From Deltaproteobacteria bacterium (GTDB lineage Bacteria > Desulfobacterota_C > Deferrisomatia > Deferrisomatales > JACRMM01): a stretch of DNA of 24,088 bases. This document shows, piece after piece, positions 5,501-23,149 of this stretch (positions within the stretch are counted from its first letter, which is position 1; each line of letters starts with the position of its first letter). Below the pieces are notes generated by a model, which saw only the letters and a list, made by a program, of their open reading frames with translations, searched no databases and was not told the DNA's origin. Both the position numbers and the translations under genes were made by a program. Where the stretch lies: the NCBI GenBank assembly GCA_016218905.1, contig JACRCS010000767.1, forward strand, positions 1-24,088, written 5' to 3'.

Positions 5501-7434
5501 GCCAGCCCACCACCGCCGTGATCCTCTGCACCTGCAGCGGCGTCGTGAGCGAGAAGATCGACTGGGCCGAGGTCCAGGCCCTACTCGCGGCACATCCGGC
5601 GCGGCCCGTCTGGAGGGTCGAGGAGCTCGCCTGCGGGGCGGAGAACCTGGAGAGCCTCGGCGCCTGGCTCGGCGCCGAGAGACCCGACCGCGTCGTGGTT
5701 GCCGCCTGCTCGCCCCGGGAACAGGAGCCGACCTTTCGCAAGCTGTTGACTTCCGCAGGCATCAATCCGTTCCTTCTTCAGCTCGTCAACGTACGGGAAC
5801 AGGTGGCGTGGGTCACGGCCGACGGCAACAGCGCCACCTCCAAGGCAGCCCGTCTCTTGGCGGGAGCCCTGAACCGGGTGCGCCGCCATGAGCCGCTCGA
5901 CGAGCGGCGGGTCCCGGTTCGCACCGACGTCGCAGTGCTCGGCGCAGGCCCGGCGGGGATGCAGGCAGCCCTCACCCTGGCCCGGGCGGGCCGGCACGTG
6001 ACCCTCGTCGAGAAGGAGCCGTTCATCGGCGGCCTGCCGGTTCGCTTCGAGGAACTCTTCCCGAACCTGGAGTGCGGTCCCTGCCTCCTCGAGCCGGTGA
6101 TGGCCGAGCTGCTCCACGGCCCGGAGAGCGCCAACGTTACCCTCCTCACCCTCTCGGAAGTGACCGAGGTCAAAGGGAGTTTCGGTAACTGGAGCCTCAC
6201 GGTCCGACAGAGGCCCCGCTACGTGCGTCCGGAGCTCTGCATCGGGTGCATGGTCTGTGCGAGCGCTTGCCCGGGCCGGCGGCCGAATCGTTGGAACGGC
6301 GCGGGGGAGATGGCCGCCGTCGATACGTCCTTTGCCGGCGCCCTCCCAAACCTCCCTCACGTCGACCCGAGCTCTTGCCTCCGACTGAACGGAGAGGAGT
6401 GCGCCGCCTGCCTCGGAGAGTGCCCGGTGGAGGGCGCCCTCGACTTCGCAGACGGGGAGCAGACCCACGAAATCGCGGCCGGCGCCCTGATCGTGGCCAC
6501 GGGCTGCGTCGAGCGGCCGGAACCAGCCGCAGGCTTCGCAGGGTTGCCCGATGTCCACTCCGCCTACGCCTTCGAGCGGATGCTCGCAATGAACGGCCCC
6601 ACCGGCGGCGAACTGCTGAAGGCCGACGGCACGCCGCCGTCCTCGGTCGCGGTCGTCCAGTGCGCGGGCTCCCTGGATCCCGAGGACGTTCCCTACTGTT
6701 CAGGCACCTGCTGCAAGGCCGCGCTCAAGTACGCCCACGTCGCTCGGGGCAAGGTGGAGGGCCTGACGGTGACGCGCCTGGTGCGGGAGCACTCGGTCGG
6801 CGGAGTGGATGCCGCCCGCCTGCTTCGCCATGGGGGCGACACGCACGTCCGCTACGGCGGCCTGACCGAGCTGAGCGTGAGCGAGACGCCGGAAGGGAGG
6901 GCGCTCCGCGCTGCCGGGACCGCCGAGCCGATTCCTGCCGACCTGATCGTCCTCTGCAATCCCCTCGTCCCTGGCGACGGGACCTGCGCCGCGGCCCGGC
7001 TGCTGGAGCTCGCCATGGACGAGGCCGGCTTCATCGCCCCCCTCCACGGGATCTCGAGCTCCTGCGCCGCGGCCCAGAAAGGAGTCTACCTGGCGGGAAG
7101 CTGTCGGGGCCCCGCAGACATTCGGGAGGCTTTCTCCACCGGCACCGCCGCTGCGGGGCACGCCCTGTCGGACCTCGTCGAGGGCCGCGATCTCGTGGTG
7201 GACCCGCAGGTGGCGGTCGTCGACGCGACGCTGTGCGCCGGTTGCAGGAGCTGCCAGCAGGTCTGCCCCTATAAGGCGGTGACCTGGAAGGAGGAGGAGA
7301 GGGTCGCCGAGGTGGCGGATCTTCTGTGCCGCGGCTGCGGTACCTGCGCGGCTGCCTGTCCGGCGGGCGCGATAATCGCCAGCGGTTTCTCCCGGGAGAT
7401 GCTCCGGGCAGAACTCGAGGGAGTCTTGTCATGA
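5497..7434 (+). CDS. hdrA: HdrA-like FAD/iron-sulfur electron-bifurcation subunit
   Basis: 645 aa from the ATG that overlaps the protease stop (ATGA); upstream extensions of the frame are shadows of the protease gene. The N-terminal domain (1-140) has the HdrA-type CTCSG (11-15). The flavin fold carries GAGPAG at 149-154 and CGPCLLEPVM near 193. An inserted ferredoxin region holds CIGCMVCASACP (248-259) and CLRLNGEECAACLGECP (294-310). Further cysteines lie at 389-406 (CAG...CSGTCC). The C-terminal ferredoxin domain has CAGCRSCQQVCP (580-591) and CRGCGTCAAACP (611-622). In known Mvh-Hdr complexes HdrA bifurcates electrons from H2 to ferredoxin and to HdrBC. HdrB and HdrC are missing here, so the high-potential acceptor is unknown. 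The 4-bp overlap with mvhD indicates one operon. Confidence 0.92.
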   Translation: MSQPTTAVILCTCSGVVSEKIDWAEVQALLAAHPARPVWRVEELACGAENLESLGAWLGAERPDRVVVAACSPREQEPTFRKLLTSAGINPFLLQLVNVREQVAWVTADGNSATSKAARLLAGALNRVRRHEPLDERRVPVRTDVAVLGAGPAGMQAALTLARAGRHVTLVEKEPFIGGLPVRFEELFPNLECGPCLLEPVMAELLHGPESANVTLLTLSEVTEVKGSFGNWSLTVRQRPRYVRPELCIGCMVCASACPGRRPNRWNGAGEMAAVDTSFAGALPNLPHVDPSSCLRLNGEECAACLGECPVEGALDFADGEQTHEIAAGALIVATGCVERPEPAAGFAGLPDVHSAYAFERMLAMNGPTGGELLKADGTPPSSVAVVQCAGSLDPEDVPYCSGTCCKAALKYAHVARGKVEGLTVTRLVREHSVGGVDAARLLRHGGDTHVRYGGLTELSVSETPEGRALRAAGTAEPIPADLIVLCNPLVPGDGTCAAARLLELAMDEAGFIAPLHGISSSCAAAQKGVYLAGSCRGPADIREAFSTGTAAAGHALSDLVEGRDLVVDPQVAVVDATLCAGCRSCQQVCPYKAVTWKEEERVAEVADLLCRGCGTCAAACPAGAIIASGFSREMLRAELEGVLS

Positions 7435-7901
7435 GCTGCACGACACCGGCCACGGCCGAGCACGAGCCCCCCAAGACCCTCGGGCGCCGCCGGGAGGACG
7501 CCAGGGTCGTCGCCTTTCTCTGCAACTGGTGCTCTTACGCCGGTGCCGACAAGGCAGGCATGAATCAGCTCGCCGTGCCGCCCGAGCTCACCGTCGTCCG
7601 GGTCATGTGTTCGGGCCGGGTCGAGCCGACGCTGATCCTCGACGCCTTCCGGAAAGGGGCCGACGGGGTGATGGTGCTCGCCTGCCACCCGGGCGACTGT
7701 CACTACAAGGAAGGGAATCTGCGCGCCTACTGTCGCGCGGAACTGCTCCAGCGGATGGTCCCCCAGCTCGGCATCGCCCCGGAGCGTTTCTACTTCGGCT
7801 ACGTCTCAGCAGCCGAGGCCGACCGATTCTCCCAGCTAACCGGCGACTTCGTCGCAGGCATCCGCGCCCTCAACGCCCAACTCGATGATGAAAGAGGATA
7901 A
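7431..7901 (+). CDS. mvhD: MvhD/FlpD-family [2Fe-2S] electron-transfer subunit
   Basis: 156 aa, near the usual 130-150. It bridges the hydrogenase and HdrA in Mvh-Hdr complexes. Visible cysteines are CNWC (C31, C34), MCSGR (C60) and CHPGDCHY (C85, C90), the family's [2Fe-2S]-type pattern. The first 23 residues form a charged extension before the conserved domain begins at VVAFLCNWC. The ATG overlaps the hdrA stop by 4 bp. The stop is 3 bp before the TusA start, with GAAAGAGGA inside its own 3' end serving as that gene's ribosome-binding site. Confidence 0.92.
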   Translation: MSCTTPATAEHEPPKTLGRRREDARVVAFLCNWCSYAGADKAGMNQLAVPPELTVVRVMCSGRVEPTLILDAFRKGADGVMVLACHPGDCHYKEGNLRAYCRAELLQRMVPQLGIAPERFYFGYVSAAEADRFSQLTGDFVAGIRALNAQLDDERG

Positions 7902-8337: not shown

Positions 8338-9813
8338 CTACTCCTCCAGTTCGATTTCGGTCGGCGTCAGCTGGTTGTCGGCGGTCAGATCCCCGCGCAC
8401 CTTGACGACCGTCCCGGTCCGGACCTGAGCCATGAACGCCGCCTGGCTGATGGTCAGCTCGTTGGCGTCGACGCTGTTGTCGTCGTTGGGACGGAACACG
8501 ATACCGGTCGCGGCAGTGTTCACGGTGAGGCCGAGGAGGGTGAGGTTCGATCCGGCGACGGCCTCCACGGGTCCGCGGATGATCACCCGATCGAGGTTGC
8601 CTCCGGGCGCGTTGTCGATTCGAAGGCGGGTGGCGATGATCGTCCCGTCCCTCGACTTGCGCCCGCGGATCTCGAGCTGGTCGTTCAGCCCGATCCCGGC
8701 TATCGCGCTGGCGTCGGTTACGCGGGTGAGGACGTTGCTCTCGACCGTGACGGCCGAGAGGTTCCGGAGGACGATGTTCGCCAGATCGGCGCTCGCGAGG
8801 CCGGACACGATCTGAAGGCGCACGTTTTCGCGGAACCGGACCCTGGTCGCCGCAAGGGTGCCGCCGGTCAGATTGCCTTCGACCTCGACCTTCGTCCCGA
8901 GGATGAGGTCGGCGCGCGGCCCGCCCGCAAAAACGGTCGCGCCGCTCGTGGTCACCGTCAGCGTCTGATCGAGGTGGCCTCCGCTCACGACGAAGCTGTT
9001 CGCGTCACCGCTCGTGACGAAGCCCTCGAAGTGGAAGTTGTTGACGTTCCCCAGTCCCGTCTTGAGTTCGACCGAAGTGGCCGCCAGGCTGCCGCCCGCG
9101 AACGTCCCTTTGGCCTCGACGATATCCCCCACCGCAGGGGACGTACCCGCCGGGAAGTTCGGGAAGGTGGTGCCCACCCCGGTCGTGACGGTGACGCCGG
9201 CTACCACGAGGGGATTGGCGCTATCCACTCGCCCCGTGACCTCGCTCTCGGCGCCCGCCGGCTTCAGCTGCACGTGCGTGGCGACGACGCGGCCCAGGTC
9301 GTCCACCGCGCCGCTCACCTCCACCTGGGCGTCGGCCACGACGTCGTTGAACCCCGGTGTGGCGCCCACGCCCACCGCCCCCGCGGCCCGGCTGAACTCC
9401 GTGTCCTGCACGGTGACGACTTCCTGGCCCATGGCCGTGAAGGTGCCGTTCGGGCTCGGGTTGGCGACAGGGCCCTGGATGGTGTCGTCGAAAGCGACGC
9501 GGGTGGCTGTCCCCGTCGTCCCGTCGGCGTTTACGGTCCCCTCCACCTCCACCACCATCCCGACCTTCAGCTTGTCTTCCGTGGCAGTCGCGCCGTCCAT
9601 GGCGATCTGTGCCCCGGTGGTCTGAAAGCGGACGCCGTTGACGACAACGCTCCCGAGCGCTTCAATTTCGCCGGTCTGGCGGGTCGGGACGGGCCCTGCG
9701 CCTCCTCCCCCTCCCCCGCCTCCGCAAGCGACCAGCGCGCCGGCCAAGGCGAAACTGGATACGAGGATCAGCAGCCGCGGCATCCCGCCTAGGATCTTCT
9801 TCGGGCTGGACAT
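8338..9813 (-). CDS. DUF5666-type repeat lipoprotein
   Basis: 491 aa from the ATG at 9813, preceded by GGAGGAGGAAGAAG; a start 45 bp further upstream in the same frame lacks such a site. The signal peptide ends in a lipobox LVAC (C30), followed by eight glycines and a short linker, so it is probably anchored to a membrane facing the periplasm or outside. The rest contains six related units, each with a V-E-V-x-G ... G-T-x-x-A-T-x-V/L pattern, at about residues 88-108, 164-183, 232-250, 308-327, 380-399 and 470-489. They form an all-beta, OB-like series of the DUF5666 type. The function is unknown in the family. It is transcribed away from the transporter and toward the hydrogenase cluster. 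Moderately sure of family, not of role. Confidence 0.82.
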   Translation of the reverse strand: MSSPKKILGGMPRLLILVSSFALAGALVACGGGGGGGGAGPVPTRQTGEIEALGSVVVNGVRFQTTGAQIAMDGATATEDKLKVGMVVEVEGTVNADGTTGTATRVAFDDTIQGPVANPSPNGTFTAMGQEVVTVQDTEFSRAAGAVGVGATPGFNDVVADAQVEVSGAVDDLGRVVATHVQLKPAGAESEVTGRVDSANPLVVAGVTVTTGVGTTFPNFPAGTSPAVGDIVEAKGTFAGGSLAATSVELKTGLGNVNNFHFEGFVTSGDANSFVVSGGHLDQTLTVTTSGATVFAGGPRADLILGTKVEVEGNLTGGTLAATRVRFRENVRLQIVSGLASADLANIVLRNLSAVTVESNVLTRVTDASAIAGIGLNDQLEIRGRKSRDGTIIATRLRIDNAPGGNLDRVIIRGPVEAVAGSNLTLLGLTVNTAATGIVFRPNDDNSVDANELTISQAAFMAQVRTGTVVKVRGDLTADNQLTPTEIELEE

Positions 9814-9910
9814 CTTCTTCCTCCTCCTGCCGTTTAAAGCGCGTGGGCCCACCTCCATCTGACTCCGCGTCGTTGCTGTCAGACGGATGTGGGCGCTGAA
9901 CCCGACTGAA

Positions 9911-17848: not shown

Positions 17849-18682
17849 GTGGGCCTGGGCCTGAACCCGCTTCCGACGCACGGGAGGTCTGCCCTGGAGT
17901 TCTGCGCCCTCGCCAGCGGAAGCAAGGGAAACGCCGTGTACGTAGGCTCCCAGGGCCGCGGGCTGCTGGTGGACGCCGGGCTGCCGGGACGCGAGATCGC
18001 CCGGAGGCTCTCCGCCGCCGGGGTCGGGCCCGAGAGCGTCGAGGGCGTCGTCGTCACCCACGAGCACCGCGACCACATCTCCGGGGTAGGCGTCTGGGCG
18101 CGCCGTTTCCGCGTGCCGGTGTACGCGGACCCGGTCACCTGGGACGCCGCCGTGAAGGCACTGCCGGCCGGGGCCCTGCGCGGGGTGGAGGTGATCCCCT
18201 TCGAGCCCGGCAGGACCTTCGAAGCCGCGGGTCTGGAGCTTCTGCCCATCACGACGAGCCACGACGCCGCCGGTTCCGTCGGCTTCCGCATCCGCGACGG
18301 CGCGTGCGCCCTCGGCTTCGTCACCGACCTCGGCTACGCCTCGGGCCTCGTCCGCGAGGCGCTGAAGGGGGCGGAGATCCTTTTCCTGGAGTCGAACCAC
18401 GACGAGGAGATGCTCGTCCGCGGGCCGTACCCCTGGCCGCTCAAGCAGCGGATCCGCTCGCGCCAGGGGCACCTCTCCAACGCGGACTGCGCCGCCCTCG
18501 TCGCCGAGCTCGTGCACGGGAAACTTCGGACGCTGGTGCTCGGTCACCTCTCTCAGACCAACAACACGCCCCGGCTCGCCTACGAGGCGGCGCAAGGCGC
18601 GCTCAAGAGCCGCGGGGCCGAGGAGGACGTCGTCCTCCTGGTGGCGAGGCAGGACGTCCCCGGGAGGCTGGTGGCGGCGTGA
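17849..18682 (+). CDS. MBL-fold metallo-hydrolase (YycJ/WalJ-like)
   Basis: 277 aa from GTG at 17849. The core motifs are ASGSKGNAVYV near the N-terminus, VVTHEHRDHISG (HxHxDH metal site), TTSHDAAGSVGF, FVTDLGYAS (metal Asp) and LESNHD, ending with LGHLSQTNNTP. It would hydrolyse a phosphodiester or similar bond using two metal ions; YycJ/WalJ relatives are nucleases linked to DNA repair and cell wall control in Firmicutes. The start is uncertain. Family members usually begin right at the LEFCALASGS part, and an in-frame CTG at 17894 has GGGAGG 6 nt upstream, whereas GTG 17849 has no good site. The true product may therefore be 262 aa. Single gene, flanked by repeat-containing gaps. Confidence 0.9.
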   Translation: MGLGLNPLPTHGRSALEFCALASGSKGNAVYVGSQGRGLLVDAGLPGREIARRLSAAGVGPESVEGVVVTHEHRDHISGVGVWARRFRVPVYADPVTWDAAVKALPAGALRGVEVIPFEPGRTFEAAGLELLPITTSHDAAGSVGFRIRDGACALGFVTDLGYASGLVREALKGAEILFLESNHDEEMLVRGPYPWPLKQRIRSRQGHLSNADCAALVAELVHGKLRTLVLGHLSQTNNTPRLAYEAAQGALKSRGAEEDVVLLVARQDVPGRLVAA

Positions 18683-18711: not shown

Positions 18712-18775
18712 ATCCCATAGGTCCCACAGGACCTATAGGTCCCATGGTGGGAGTTATGGGATTCATGGGAATGAT
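18712..18775. repeat. repeat-rich intergenic patch (ATAGGTCCCA units)
   Basis: ATAGGTCCCA occurs at 18717-18726 and 18735-18744. ATAGGTCC (18717-18724) also pairs with GGACCTAT (18729-18736) around CACA, and TCCCA/TGGGA pair at 18740-18752. Then ATGGGA recurs with similar ATGG words up to 18775. It lies just before purB. Could be a purine-operon control site, an attenuator-like structure or a dispersed repeat. Confidence 0.45.
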
Positions 18776-18813
18776 GGCACCTTCCGCACCCGGCCCCCCT
18801 AACAGGAACAACC

Positions 18814-20145
18814 ATGATAGCACGGTACACCCGCCCCCAGATGGCCACAGTCTGGACCGCAGAGAACCGGTACCGGAAGTGGCTCGGCGGAGAGATCTAC
18901 GCCTGAGAGGCGTGGAACCAGTTGGGCGCGGTGCCCGACGCCGCCCTGGAGACGATCCGCTCCAAGGCCCGGTTCGAGGTGGCGCGGGTCGAGGAGATCG
19001 AGGCCGAGGTCAAGCACGACGTCATCGCCTTCCTGACGAACGTCGCCGAGCACGTCGGCCCCGACGCCCGCTTCCTCCACCTCGGCATGACCTCCTCGGA
19101 CGTCCTCGACACCTCGCTCGCCATGCTCCTGGTGGAGGCGACGGACCTCCTGATCGCGCAGGTGGAGACGCTCCTCGAGGTCCTCAAGGCGAGGGCCCAC
19201 GAGTTTCGGTCGACTCCGCAGATGGGGCGCTCCCACGGCATCCACGCGGAGCCGATCACGTTTGGCCTGAAGCTCGCCCTCTGGTACGACGAGACGCGGC
19301 GAAACCTCGGGCGGCTCCAGCGCGCGCGGGAGGTGATCGCTTTCGGGAAGGTCTCCGGGGCGGTGGGAACCTTCGCCAACGTCGAGCCCTTCGTCGAGGA
19401 GTACGTCTGCCGGAAGGCCGGGCTCAAGCCCGCGCTCGTCTCGACGCAGGTCGTCCAGCGCGACCACCACGCCGAGTACTTCGGCCTGCTCGCGGTGGTG
19501 GCGGCGAGCATCGAGAAGTTCTGCGTCGAGATCCGGCACCTCCAGCGCACCGAGGTCCTGGAGGCGGAGGAGTACTTCTCGAAAGGGCAGAAGGGCTCCT
19601 CCGCGATGCCCCACAAGCGCAATCCCATCGCCAGCGAGAACCTGGCGGGCTGTGCCCGGCTCATGCGCTCCTACGCCCAAGCCGCGCTGGAGAACGTGGC
19701 CCTGTGGCACGAGCGCGATATCTCCCACTCCAGCGTGGAGCGGGTGATCGCCCCCGACGCGACGATCCTCCTCCACTATATGCTCCACCGCTTCACGGGC
19801 CTCGTGAAGAACCTCGTCGTCTATCCCGAGAACATGGCGAAGAACCTCGAGCGCACCGGGGGGCTGATCCACAGCCAGCGGCTGCTGCTCGCGCTCGTGG
19901 AGAAGGGCATTGCCCGGGAAGAGGCCTATCGCCTCGTCCAGCGTAACGCCATGCGGGTCTGGGAGGAGGGCGCGGACTACCGCGCGCTCCTGCGGGCCGA
20001 TCCGGACGTCTCCCGGCTGCTCACCGAGGCCGAGATCGACGAGGCCTTCGATATCCGGTATCATATGAAAAATATTGGCAAAATTTTTGAGAGGGTCTTC
20101 GGCGAAGACTCTCTGCCCGTCGCCGGGACCACTCCGGCCGGGTGA
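18814..20145 (+). CDS. purB: adenylosuccinate lyase with an in-frame TGA at codon 31
   Basis: Frame of 444 codons. PurB acts twice in purine synthesis (SAICAR to AICAR; adenylosuccinate to AMP). From the ATG at 18814 (AGGAAC just upstream) the first 30 residues are clearly PurB (MIARYTRPQMATVWTAEN...), then comes TGA at 18904-18906, then EAWNQLG and the rest in frame. Relatives read ACEAW here, so TGA replaces the Cys codon. After it all family motifs are intact: HLGMTSSDVLDTSL, MGRSHGIHAEPITFG and the signature GQKGSSAMPHKRNPIASEN. Restart at TTG 18922 or GTG 18931 would lose the RYTRP substrate-binding segment. It may be a nonsense mutation, a sequence error or a recoded codon. The 3' end has an AT-rich island and hairpin, and purL follows after 13 bp. 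Confidence 0.85.
18904..18942 (+). other. in-frame TGA followed by a small two-part stem-loop
   Basis: TGA at 18904-18906. Downstream, GGCGT (18909-18913) can pair with ACGCC (18938-18942), and inside it TGGGC (18923-18927) with GCCCG (18933-18937, one G-U pair) around a GCGGT loop. Bacterial selenocysteine elements have a comparable position and a G near the start of the loop, but such stems arise easily in GC-rich coding DNA. This is a candidate structure, not a called element. Confidence 0.2.
20059..20114 (+). other. AT-rich island and hairpin at the purB-purL junction
   Basis: Bases 20059-20092 are strongly AT-rich, with nearly all codons ending in A or T, unlike the rest of the gene. 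Next, AGAGGGTCTTC (20090-20100) pairs with GAAGACTCTCT (20104-20114) around GGC, with one G-U pair. It sits where PurB homology ends, about 45 bp before purL. Confidence 0.5.
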
Positions 20146-20158
20146 GTTCGAGGCTTCC

Positions 20159-23149
20159 ATGACCCATCGCTCCGAAGTGGCCACGAAGGGACACCTCCGC
20201 GACGCCCGCGGCGACGGGGTGACCCGGGAGATCCGAGAGTTCCTGCACCTTCCGGTGGACGAGGTGCGCACCCTCGACGTCTACACCCTCGACCTGGGGC
20301 TCGGGCTCGACGAGGCGGAGGTCTGCGCCCGGGAGGCGCTCTCGGACCCCGTCGTCCAGGAGGTCTCCGTCGGCTCGCCCCTGGCGCTGCGGCTCTACCC
20401 GGGGTTCCACTGGGCCGTGGAGGTGGGCTTCCTGCCCGGCGTGACGGACAACGTGGGGCGGACCGCCAAGGAGGCGGTCGAGATGCTCCTCGGGCGGGAC
20501 TTCCCCCACGAGGCGCAGGTCTACACCTCGGTCCAGTACCTCCTTCGCGGCGAGGCCCTCGGCAGGGATGACGTGGAGGCGATCGCCTCGGGGCTGCTCG
20601 CCAACTCTCTCATCCAACGGTGGGCGATCCTCTCCCGCGAGGAGTTCAGCAAGGCCGGAGGCTTTCCCATCCACGTCCCCCGGGTCCGCTCCGCCTCCGA
20701 GCCCACGGTCGAGGAGGTCGACCTGGAGGTCTCGGAAGAGGAGCTCCTGCGGGTCTCCCGCGAGCGTCTCCTGGCCTTGAGCCTCGAGGAGCTGGAAGCC
20801 ATCCGGGGCTTCTACGCGGCTTCCCGGAAGGACCGGGCGGCGCGGGGGCTCCCACCCGGCCCCACGGACGTGGAGCTCGAGTGTCTCGCCCAGACGTGGT
20901 CCGAGCACTGCAAGCACAAGATCTTCAACGCGACCATCCACTACCACGACGGCGGCGAGGAGCCCCGGACTATCCGAAGCCTCTTCAAAACCTACATCGT
21001 CGGGGCCACCGAGCGGGTGCGCCGGGGCCTGGGCGACCGGGACTTCTGCCTCTCGGTCTTCAAGGACAACGCCGGCGTGATCGCGTGGAACGACCGGTGG
21101 TCGCTCTGCTTCAAGGTCGAGACCCACAACTCTCCTTCGGCCCTGGACCCCTACGGCGGCGCCCTCACCGGCATCGTCGGCGTCAACCGGGATCCGATGG
21201 GCACCGGCATGGGCGCCCGGCTGATCTTCAACGTCGACACGTTCTGCTTCGCGGATCCCTTCTTCGGGGGTGAGCTCCCGCCGCGGCTCCTCCACCCCCG
21301 CCGCATCTACGAGGGTGTCGTCCGGGGGGTCGAGCACGGGGGAAACAAGAGCGGCATCCCGACCGTCAACGGGACCGTCGTCTTCGACGACCGCTTCCTC
21401 GGAAAGCCGCTGGTCTACTGCGGCACCGCGGGCATCCTGCCGCGGGACCTCCACGGCCGGCCGGGGCACGAGAAGCGGGCGCTCCCGGGGGACCGGATCG
21501 TCATGGCCGGCGGCCGCATCGGGAAGGACGGCATCCACGGCGCGACCTTCTCCTCCGAGGAGCTCCACGAGGGGAGCCCGGCCACGGCCGTCCAGCTCGG
21601 GGACCCGATCACCCAGAAGCGGCTCTACGACTTCCTCATGGTCGCGCAGGAGAGGGGCCTCTACCGCTCGATCACCGACAACGGGGCCGGAGGGCTCTCC
21701 TCGAGCGTCGGCGAGATGGCGGGCGAGACCGGCGGGGCGAAGCTCCACCTCGACCGCGCGCCGCTGAAGTATCCAGGCCTCGCGCCGTGGGAGATCCTCG
21801 TCTCCGAGTCCCAGGAGCGGATGACGCTGGCGGTGGGCGCCGAGCGGATCGACGAGTTCCTCGCGCTGGCGCGCGAGATGCGCGTGGAGGCGACGGTGCT
21901 CGGGGAGTTCACCTCCGACGGGGCGTTCCAGGCCCTCTACGAGGGGCAGACGGTGGCCCACCTCCCGATGGCCTTCCTCCACGAGGGCCTGCCGACGATG
22001 GAGCTCACGGCCCGGTGGGAGAAGCCCGTCCACCCCGAGCCCTCCGAGGCCGCTCCGGAGGACCTGACGGGAGACCTCGTGGCGCTGCTCGGCCGCCTCA
22101 ACGTCTGCTCGAAGGAGCCCATCGTCCGGCGTTACGACCACGAGGTGCAGGGGGGCAGCGTCGTCAAGCCCTTCGTCGGGGCGGCCAACGACGGGCCTTC
22201 CGACGCCGCGGTGATCCGGCCGGTCCTCGACTCCTTCGAGGGAGTGGTGACGGCCCAGGGCATCTGTCCCCGCTACAGCGACGTCGATACCTACTGGATG
22301 ATGGCTGCGGCCGTGGACGAGGCGATCCGCAACGCCCTGGCCGTGGGCGGGAGCCTCGAACACCTGGCCGGCCTCGACAACTTCTGCTGGTGCGATCCGG
22401 TCCGGAGCGAGAAGACGCCGGACGGGGAGTACAAGCTCGCCCAGCTCGTGCGCGCCAACGAGGCGCTCTACGACCTCACGGTCGCCTACGGAGTCCCCCT
22501 CATCTCGGGCAAGGACTCCATGAAGAACGACTACTCCATCGGCGGCACCAAGATCTCCATCCCGCCCACCGTGCTCTTCAGCGTCATCGGCCGGGTGGAG
22601 GACGTTCGCCGGTGCGTCACGATGGACGCGAAGCGGCCGGGAGACCTGGTCTACGTGCTCGGGACGACGCGCAGGGAGCTCGGCGGGTCCGAGTACTGGG
22701 CGTCGAAGGGCTTCGTCGGCAACGGGGTGCCCAAGGTCCATCCGGAGGAGCACCTCCTCCTCTACCGGTGCCTCTCGGCGGCCATCCGGGAGGGACTCGT
22801 CGCCTCGTGCCACGACTGCTCCGACGGCGGTCTCGCGGTCGCGTTGGCGGAGACGGCCTTCGCGGGCGGCCTCGGCCTGCACGCAGATCTCTCGCGCGTA
22901 CCGACCGAAGGCGTCGCGCGGGACGACGAGCTCTTCTTCTCGGAGTCCCAGGGGCGGTTCGTGGTGACGGTCCGGCCGGCCCACGCGGCGCGCTTCGAAG
23001 AGCTCTTCTCCGGGCGCCCGGCGGCCCGGGTGGGGGAGATCCAGGCGGCGCCGGACTTCACGCTCGTGGGCCTGACGGAGCGGGAGGCGGTCAGGACCCG
23101 TATCTCCGAGCTCAAGGAAGCCTGGCAGAGACCCCTGGCCAGGATATGA
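20159..23149 (+). CDS. purL: phosphoribosylformylglycinamidine synthase, PurS-PurL fusion
   Basis: 996 aa from the ATG at 20159 (GAGG 5 nt upstream); an in-frame ATG at 20075 lies within purB and is unlikely. It converts FGAR, ATP and glutamine-derived ammonia to FGAM, step four of purine synthesis. The first roughly 200 residues are PurS-like, with two related beta-rich stretches (VRTLDVYTLDLGLGL...; WAVEVGFLPGVTDNVGRTA). The synthetase follows: TWSEHCKHKIFNATI, ETHNSPSALDPYGGA, GGNKSGIPTVNG, GGRIGKDGIHGATFSS, DNGAGGLSSSVGEMA and ISGKDSMKNDY. The glutaminase is separate (purQ next). Length and order match Geobacter-type enzymes, intermediate between small PurL and the 1,300-aa proteobacterial fusion. 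Its stop overlaps an in-frame ATG of purQ. Confidence 0.93.
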   Translation: MTHRSEVATKGHLRDARGDGVTREIREFLHLPVDEVRTLDVYTLDLGLGLDEAEVCAREALSDPVVQEVSVGSPLALRLYPGFHWAVEVGFLPGVTDNVGRTAKEAVEMLLGRDFPHEAQVYTSVQYLLRGEALGRDDVEAIASGLLANSLIQRWAILSREEFSKAGGFPIHVPRVRSASEPTVEEVDLEVSEEELLRVSRERLLALSLEELEAIRGFYAASRKDRAARGLPPGPTDVELECLAQTWSEHCKHKIFNATIHYHDGGEEPRTIRSLFKTYIVGATERVRRGLGDRDFCLSVFKDNAGVIAWNDRWSLCFKVETHNSPSALDPYGGALTGIVGVNRDPMGTGMGARLIFNVDTFCFADPFFGGELPPRLLHPRRIYEGVVRGVEHGGNKSGIPTVNGTVVFDDRFLGKPLVYCGTAGILPRDLHGRPGHEKRALPGDRIVMAGGRIGKDGIHGATFSSEELHEGSPATAVQLGDPITQKRLYDFLMVAQERGLYRSITDNGAGGLSSSVGEMAGETGGAKLHLDRAPLKYPGLAPWEILVSESQERMTLAVGAERIDEFLALAREMRVEATVLGEFTSDGAFQALYEGQTVAHLPMAFLHEGLPTMELTARWEKPVHPEPSEAAPEDLTGDLVALLGRLNVCSKEPIVRRYDHEVQGGSVVKPFVGAANDGPSDAAVIRPVLDSFEGVVTAQGICPRYSDVDTYWMMAAAVDEAIRNALAVGGSLEHLAGLDNFCWCDPVRSEKTPDGEYKLAQLVRANEALYDLTVAYGVPLISGKDSMKNDYSIGGTKISIPPTVLFSVIGRVEDVRRCVTMDAKRPGDLVYVLGTTRRELGGSEYWASKGFVGNGVPKVHPEEHLLLYRCLSAAIREGLVASCHDCSDGGLAVALAETAFAGGLGLHADLSRVPTEGVARDDELFFSESQGRFVVTVRPAHAARFEELFSGRPAARVGEIQAAPDFTLVGLTEREAVRTRISELKEAWQRPLARI

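What the first reader, a model, noticed from the sequence alone, without database searches (positions are those of the whole stretch)
18814..18945. purB carries an in-frame TGA exactly at a family cysteine (ACEAW motif)
Seen: from the ATG at 18814 with a ribosome-binding site, the reading frame gives a textbook PurB N-terminus, then TGA at codon 31, then the family continues in frame with all later motifs intact. In Bacillus-type PurB this position is Cys (ILACEAW). TGC or TGT to TGA is a single change. A Cys-to-Sec swap would look exactly like this, and a two-part stem-loop follows the TGA. The simplest explanations are still a point mutation or a sequence error, because the essential gene appears otherwise under selection. 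An annotation pipeline would likely call a truncated gene starting near 18922 and miss the N-terminus.
Basis: partly seen in the sequence, partly recalled or inferred. Interest (0 to 1): 0.75.

Follow-up and report, generated by a model that had tools for sequence, protein, structure and literature searches.

The report
Private stop codon in housekeeping gene
A bacterial purine-making gene in one metagenome contig carries a stop codon where its close relatives have a cysteine; most likely this is a sequence error or a one-off mutation, not a new selenium-containing enzyme.

Summary
The in-frame TGA is in the sequence (18904-18906, codon 31 of purB 18814-20145). The gene is the operon copy: the order MBL-fold gene, purB, purL recurs in 9 of 9 relatives fetched.

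No relative seen shares the TGA: 119 of 120 best protein hits have Cys, one Thr; of 78 DNA rows, 34 are Cys, 36 Ala, 8 Thr/Leu/Met/Ser. The position tolerates Ala, so an obligatory catalytic cysteine is unlikely.

Sec cannot be dismissed for lack of machinery: SelB and tRNA-Sec occur in 12 of 12 related genomes, SelA in 10 of 12, with TGA-bearing Fdh, SelD, FlpD and HesB-like genes.

The hairpin after the TGA is unusually strong and passes the published bacterial SECIS model, but 1930 of 6296 codons of this contig pass too. All 36 distinct elements that I could place in the relatives have an NG[GU] apical loop; the window's GCGGU does not.

Verdict: a private, unrecoded TGA; sequence error or unfixed variant most likely, genuine nonsense second, Sec about 5%. 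The window's own genome and reads were not available; reads at 18906 would decide.

The parts
17849..18682 (+). MBL-fold hydrolase gene upstream of purB; ends in TGA
   Evidence: Lactamase_B_2 and Lactamase_B; same neighbour in 9 of 9 fetched relatives; stop read
18804..18808 (+). AGGAA, likely ribosome-binding site of purB
   Evidence: sequence
18814..20145 (+). purB (adenylosuccinate lyase) interrupted at codon 31
18904..18906 (+). in-frame TGA; Cys in 119 of 120 best hits
18896..18916 (+). 9-bp inverted repeat with 3-nt loop GAG; base 18906 is the middle of the loop
   Evidence: fold
18921..18939 (+). 7-bp hairpin, loop GCGGU (18928-18932), 21 nt after the TGA; SECIS-like in strength, not in loop
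18922..20145 (+). 407-aa open frame from TTG, the possible restart
20159..23149 (+). purL, intact

Best explanation
The TGA is not recoded. It is a departure private to one metagenome contig, in the operon copy of an otherwise selected purB, and most likely a base-call or consensus error, or an unfixed variant caught in the consensus; the living population probably carries an uninterrupted purB. Shown: privacy in all sets searched, coding-like sequence on both sides, conserved operon place, SECIS loop unlike that of the relatives. Inferred: that the cause is error rather than mutation.
For: No TGA at this codon in 120 protein hits or 78 DNA rows. A YAUEAW pattern in 395 genomes of the phylum gave one match, which is not PurB. 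After the TGA 1 of 219 conserved positions departs; codons 1-30 differ from L006 by 3/5/12 at codon positions 1/2/3, 22% overall against 20% in codons 32-430, as in coding sequence. Residues R4, Y5, M10, W14, W23, L24, E27, A30 and E32, invariant in the homologues that cover them, are kept. Only one row for the nearest genome G001 appears among the printed PurB matches (list cut). Such single Cys/TGA pairs were left as mere candidates because of sequencing error in the Sargasso Sea survey (PMC1088965, passages).
Against: No reads were available, so error is inferred. The other odd codons before the TGA and the excess of A-ending codons there (5 of 30 against 8 of 412 later, p = 9e-4; p = 0.025 against the starts of 16 other genes) are not explained by one wrong base. 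The strong hairpin (42 of 6278 codons have a 5-nt-loop hairpin as stable) is then coincidence.
Confidence: 0.62

Rival explanations
1. A genuine nonsense mutation in the sequenced strain: PurB stops after 30 residues, and the cell relies on another lyase, on imported adenine compounds or on low-level UGA read-through.
For: The window departs at 4 conserved positions before the TGA besides the TGA itself, a sign of relaxed constraint; one change from a Cys codon is enough (one search shows TGC in L006).
Against: Conserved positions after the TGA are kept (1 of 219 departs), codons 1-30 are coding-like, purL beside it is intact. AMP synthesis needs this enzyme (general knowledge), so a fixed loss is unlikely.
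Confidence: 0.25
2. The TGA is read as selenocysteine: SelB with Sec-tRNA binds the hairpin at 18921-18939 and PurB is a selenoprotein.
For: SelB over cut-off in 12 of 12 related genomes, SelA in 10 of 12, tRNA-Sec over the gathering score in 12 of 12 (also over it in 5 of 14 control genomes). TGA aligns with Cys. The hairpin meets the published constraints (Fig. 2 legend of PMC13188914; tested) and is stronger than in 77 of 77 PurB relatives. In another register, an 8-bp stem with a 3-nt loop CGG, it even passes my looser loop pattern; 1.4% of codons do as well.
Against: 1930 of 6296 codons, 41 of 118 Cys codons and 28 of 77 PurB relatives pass the published model. All 36 distinct TGA elements placed in relatives have an NG[GU] loop (33; 3 with GGUCCU); the window has GCGGU. 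The fold after the TGA is not exceptional against shuffles (z -0.83 and -1.14; -2.29 only for the stretch that includes the repeat around the TGA). The position is Ala in 36 of 78 rows. No second sequence has the TGA. PurB is not mentioned in the 2026 review (term search).
Confidence: 0.05
3. Translation restarts after the TGA (for example at TTG 18922) and a shortened PurB works, with or without the 30-residue leader.
For: An open 407-aa frame follows; some departures before the TGA.
Against: The lost part holds residues invariant in the homologues that cover them, such as R4, Y5, M10, W14, W23, L24, E27, all kept here. Codons 32-35, which would not be translated, are identical to L006. No such protein of this contig is listed.
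Confidence: 0.05

Closest known systems
Adenylosuccinate lyase of the 1f1o/1c3u type (PDB; Bacillus and Thermotoga origin recalled)
   Same: Aligned over residues 1-428, Pfam Lyase_1 and ADSL_C, same place before purL in relatives.
   Different: TGA in place of the Cys at codon 31; a few odd residues before it.
Bacterial selenoproteins of the same clade (Fdh, SelD, FlpD, HesB-like)
   Same: In-frame TGA followed by a stable hairpin at similar distance.
   Different: Their loops are NG[GU] and the TGA recurs across several genomes; here the loop is GCGGU and the TGA is private. The HesB-like matches are below the family's curated cut-off.
Single-sequence Cys/TGA 'selenoprotein candidates' of metagenome surveys (PMC1088965)
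   Same: One metagenomic sequence with TGA aligned to Cys and a SECIS-like structure.
   Different: Nothing of substance; that survey left such cases open because of sequencing error (passages).

Membership tests
Adenylosuccinate lyase (PurB) | Lyase_1 and ADSL_C domains in one frame | tested here: met
   with the TGA read through and also from 18907 on
Adenylosuccinate lyase (PurB) | place in the purine operon | tested here: met
   MBL-fold gene, purB, purL in 9 of 9 fetched relatives; in the window purL and a GATase_5 (PurQ-like) gene follow
Adenylosuccinate lyase (PurB) | uninterrupted reading frame under the standard code | tested here: not met
   TGA at codon 31
Bacterial selenoprotein | in-frame TGA aligned with Cys of homologues | tested here: met
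   119 of 120 best hits; only 34 of 78 in the wider DNA set
Bacterial selenoprotein | Sec machinery in the same genome | tested here: inconclusive
   own genome not held; relatives: SelB 12 of 12, SelA 10 of 12, tRNA-Sec 12 of 12
Bacterial selenoprotein | published bSECIS constraints | tested here: met
   but 1930 of 6296 codons meet them too
Bacterial selenoprotein | apical loop NG[GU] as in the 36 distinct elements placed in relatives | tested here: not met
   GCGGU; 11 of 54 TGA-bearing loci could not be placed
Bacterial selenoprotein | TGA conserved in at least one homologue | tested here: not met
   0 of 120, 0 of 78, no PurB match of the pattern in 395 genomes
Bacterial selenoprotein | Sec at a redox or catalytic Cys | tested here: inconclusive
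   Ala, Thr, Leu, Met or Ser in 44 of 78 rows speaks against; no structure was examined
Bacterial selenoprotein | selenium in the protein | not testable with these tools
   needs mass spectrometry or 75Se labelling

The most novel reading that the evidence does not exclude
A selenocysteine-containing adenylosuccinate lyase in a Deferrisomatales-like bacterium, decoded through a strong hairpin with a non-canonical GCGGU loop: Sec in a purine-biosynthesis lyase at a non-catalytic, Ala-tolerant site.
Probability: 0.05. Interest if true: 0.8.

Novelty: not a real feature. Interest (0 to 1): 0.15.

Why it matters
If the TGA were read as Sec, it would show Sec spreading to a non-redox housekeeping enzyme. 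As it stands, the case shows how easily a lone TGA at a Cys codon in GC-rich DNA looks like a selenoprotein: the generic SECIS model passes about a third of the codons here, while a loop signature taken from the relatives' own selenoprotein genes argues against it.

Tried and rejected
Sec machinery absent in the lineage: rejected. TGA reassigned in this organism: rejected, purB and its upstream neighbour end in TGA. Old pseudogene: rejected, conserved positions after the TGA are kept and codons 1-30 are coding-like. Conspecific found through PurL: only the contig itself at 100%; next by score 80%, one partial match 82%. TGA-PurB elsewhere: pattern in 395 genomes, one match, not PurB. N-terminal substrate contacts of PurB from the literature: nothing useful (search listing; passages of PMC6301967), so that point rests on conservation. 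No structure was predicted or searched.

Weaknesses: the hairpin criteria were set after I had seen the fold. The 36 SECIS elements come from four gene families, so independent cases are far fewer. 11 of 54 TGA-bearing loci could not be placed by motif and were left out; duplicates were merged on their first 45 nt; one wrong-frame HesB match was dropped. Three of the ten FlpD/SelD-type hairpin groups are weak (-2.3 to -4 kcal/mol), so strength alone does not define the real ones. In one search I used a wrong frame for purQ, so I claim no purQ order in relatives. The mvhD start used lay upstream of the likely start. Kinship of the 12 genomes is not told by the tool; they are G001 and the genomes listed next as its relatives, and three of them (G005, G011, G014) had no close PurB match.

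Full report
The observation. The frame from ATG 18814 gives PurB, with TGA at 18904-18906 as codon 31, and runs on to TGA 20143-20145. Read through, the protein matches Lyase_1 and ADSL_C and aligns over residues 1-428 with the solved lyase 1f1o. The order MBL-fold gene, purB, purL is found in 9 of 9 stretches fetched from relatives, so this is the operon copy and not a stray duplicate. The window is a whole contig: its own PurL is in the protein database on a contig of 24,088 bases (P0121). No genome is held for it and no conspecific was seen: best PurB 83% among the 120 listed, next PurL 80% by score, one partial 82%. Names of the best hits (Deltaproteobacteria, Deferrisomatales, Deferrisoma) suggest a Deferrisomatales-like bacterium.

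The site in relatives. In 120 best hits the residue is Cys in 119 and Thr in one. In 78 DNA rows covering it (2 of 80 do not), it is Cys 34, Ala 36, Thr 3, Leu 2, Met 2, Ser 1, and no stop (L006 and L054 are one gene seen twice). The 10 rows at 70% identity or more read TGC in nine and TGT in one. The cysteine is a habit of this lineage rather than a need. In four relatives 11-19 codons of purB lie one change from TGA, and 4 or 5 of these are Cys, so an accidental hit on a Cys is unremarkable.

Is the gene alive? After residue 45, 1 of 219 positions conserved in at least 95% of 44 homologues departs; in residues 1-45, 5 of 24. Without the TGA itself Fisher p is 3e-4. None of the 44 homologues shows so many departures at its N-terminus (the highest is 4 of 26, in P0040, which also has 5 of 222 later). 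The contrast weakens at a 90% cut-off (5 of 29 against 7 of 242). With the nine family-level genes as reference it is milder too: 13 departures at 250 invariant positions, 4 of them in residues 9-31, and purL also has a 30-residue stretch with 4. At DNA level codons 1-30 differ from L006 by 3/5/12 at codon positions 1/2/3, 22% overall against 20% in codons 32-430, as coding sequence does. Nine residues of the first 36 that are invariant in the homologues covering them are kept. An excess of A-ending codons before the TGA (5 of 30 against 8 of 412 later, p = 9e-4; p = 0.025 against the starts of 16 other genes) stays unexplained. The interruption is therefore recent or unreal.

Selenocysteine, the case for. 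SelB is over cut-off in 12 of 12 related genomes, SelA in 10 of 12, tRNA-Sec over its gathering score in 12 of 12. TGA lies inside 14 of 14 Fdh matches in 9 of 12 genomes, 12 of 14 SelD matches, 25 of 44 FlpD matches and 12 of 12 HesB-like matches, the last all below the family's cut-off. The hairpin at 18921-18939 (7 bp, loop GCGGU, 21 nt after the TGA, -10.7 kcal/mol) is stronger than at the same place in any of 77 PurB relatives; by that first measure 150 of 6313 codons of the contig do as well, and only 42 of 6278 have a 5-nt-loop hairpin as stable.

The case against. The published constraints (Fig. 2 legend of PMC13188914, passage) are met, but also by 1930 of 6296 codons, 41 of 118 Cys codons and 28 of 77 PurB relatives. 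A sharper test uses the relatives' own elements. From 54 TGA-bearing loci I could place the TGA in 43, giving 36 distinct elements: 5 Fdh, 10 SelD, 10 FlpD, 11 HesB-like. In 33 the most stable 5-nt-loop hairpin has the loop NG[GU]NN; the other 3, all SelD, have GGUCCU, or GUCC with one more pair. Spacing varies (18-26 nt in that frame); the loop signature does not. The window's GCGGU has C where these have G. By chance 254 of 1841 hairpin-bearing codons of the contig have the signature. Against my reading: a looser pattern with an optional first base accepts an 8-bp register of the window's stem with loop CGG (-10.4 kcal/mol; 1.4% of codons do as well); the 3-nt loops of the real elements in that call start with G, not C. 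The four families are not 36 independent cases, so the test lowers the Sec reading without excluding it. The fold after the TGA is not exceptional against shuffles (z -0.83 and -1.14).

No second sequence supports it: 0 of 120, 0 of 78, and a pattern search in 395 genomes of the phylum gave one match that is not PurB (that pattern covers only the YAUEAW context). The Sargasso Sea authors left single sequences as candidates because of sequencing error (PMC1088965, passages). The 2026 review has no mention of adenylosuccinate or PurB (PMC13188914, term search of the main text), and a full-text search for selenocysteine, selenoprotein and adenylosuccinate lyase together listed 2 papers, neither about this by title and abstract start.

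Verdict. On present evidence the stop is private and unrecoded. I put error or unfixed variant at 0.62, genuine nonsense at 0.25, Sec at 0.05 and a working restart at 0.05. These are judgements, not computed odds. The base sits at the apex of a 9-bp inverted repeat (18896-18916), a kind of place where sequencing is known to stumble (recalled, not tested). Reads at 18906 decide.

Noticed in passing
18712-18762: The gap before purB holds three 13-nt direct repeats (CCCATAGGTCCCA-like) and inverted repeats up to 16 nt; the nearest relative has different short repeats (ACCAAGG) at the same place.
   Followed up: partly
7431-7901: The window's own FlpD/MvhD-like gene is open with Cys throughout, while 25 of 44 FlpD matches in related genomes carry an in-frame TGA.
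   Followed up: partly
L151, L158-L160 versus L153, L156, L157, L162, L165, L166: FlpD in these relatives shows TGA at two different sites, CNWU/CHWU and AGU, each followed by a loop with the NG[GU] signature.
   Followed up: no
18814-18903: Excess of A-ending codons and several odd residues before the TGA, unlike the rest of purB.
   Followed up: partly
18799-20271 (minus strand): A 490-aa open frame lies opposite purB, probably a GC-rich artefact; it may be why no own PurB appears in the protein database.
   Followed up: no
8338-9858 (minus strand): Protein with five DUF5666 stretches.
   Followed up: no
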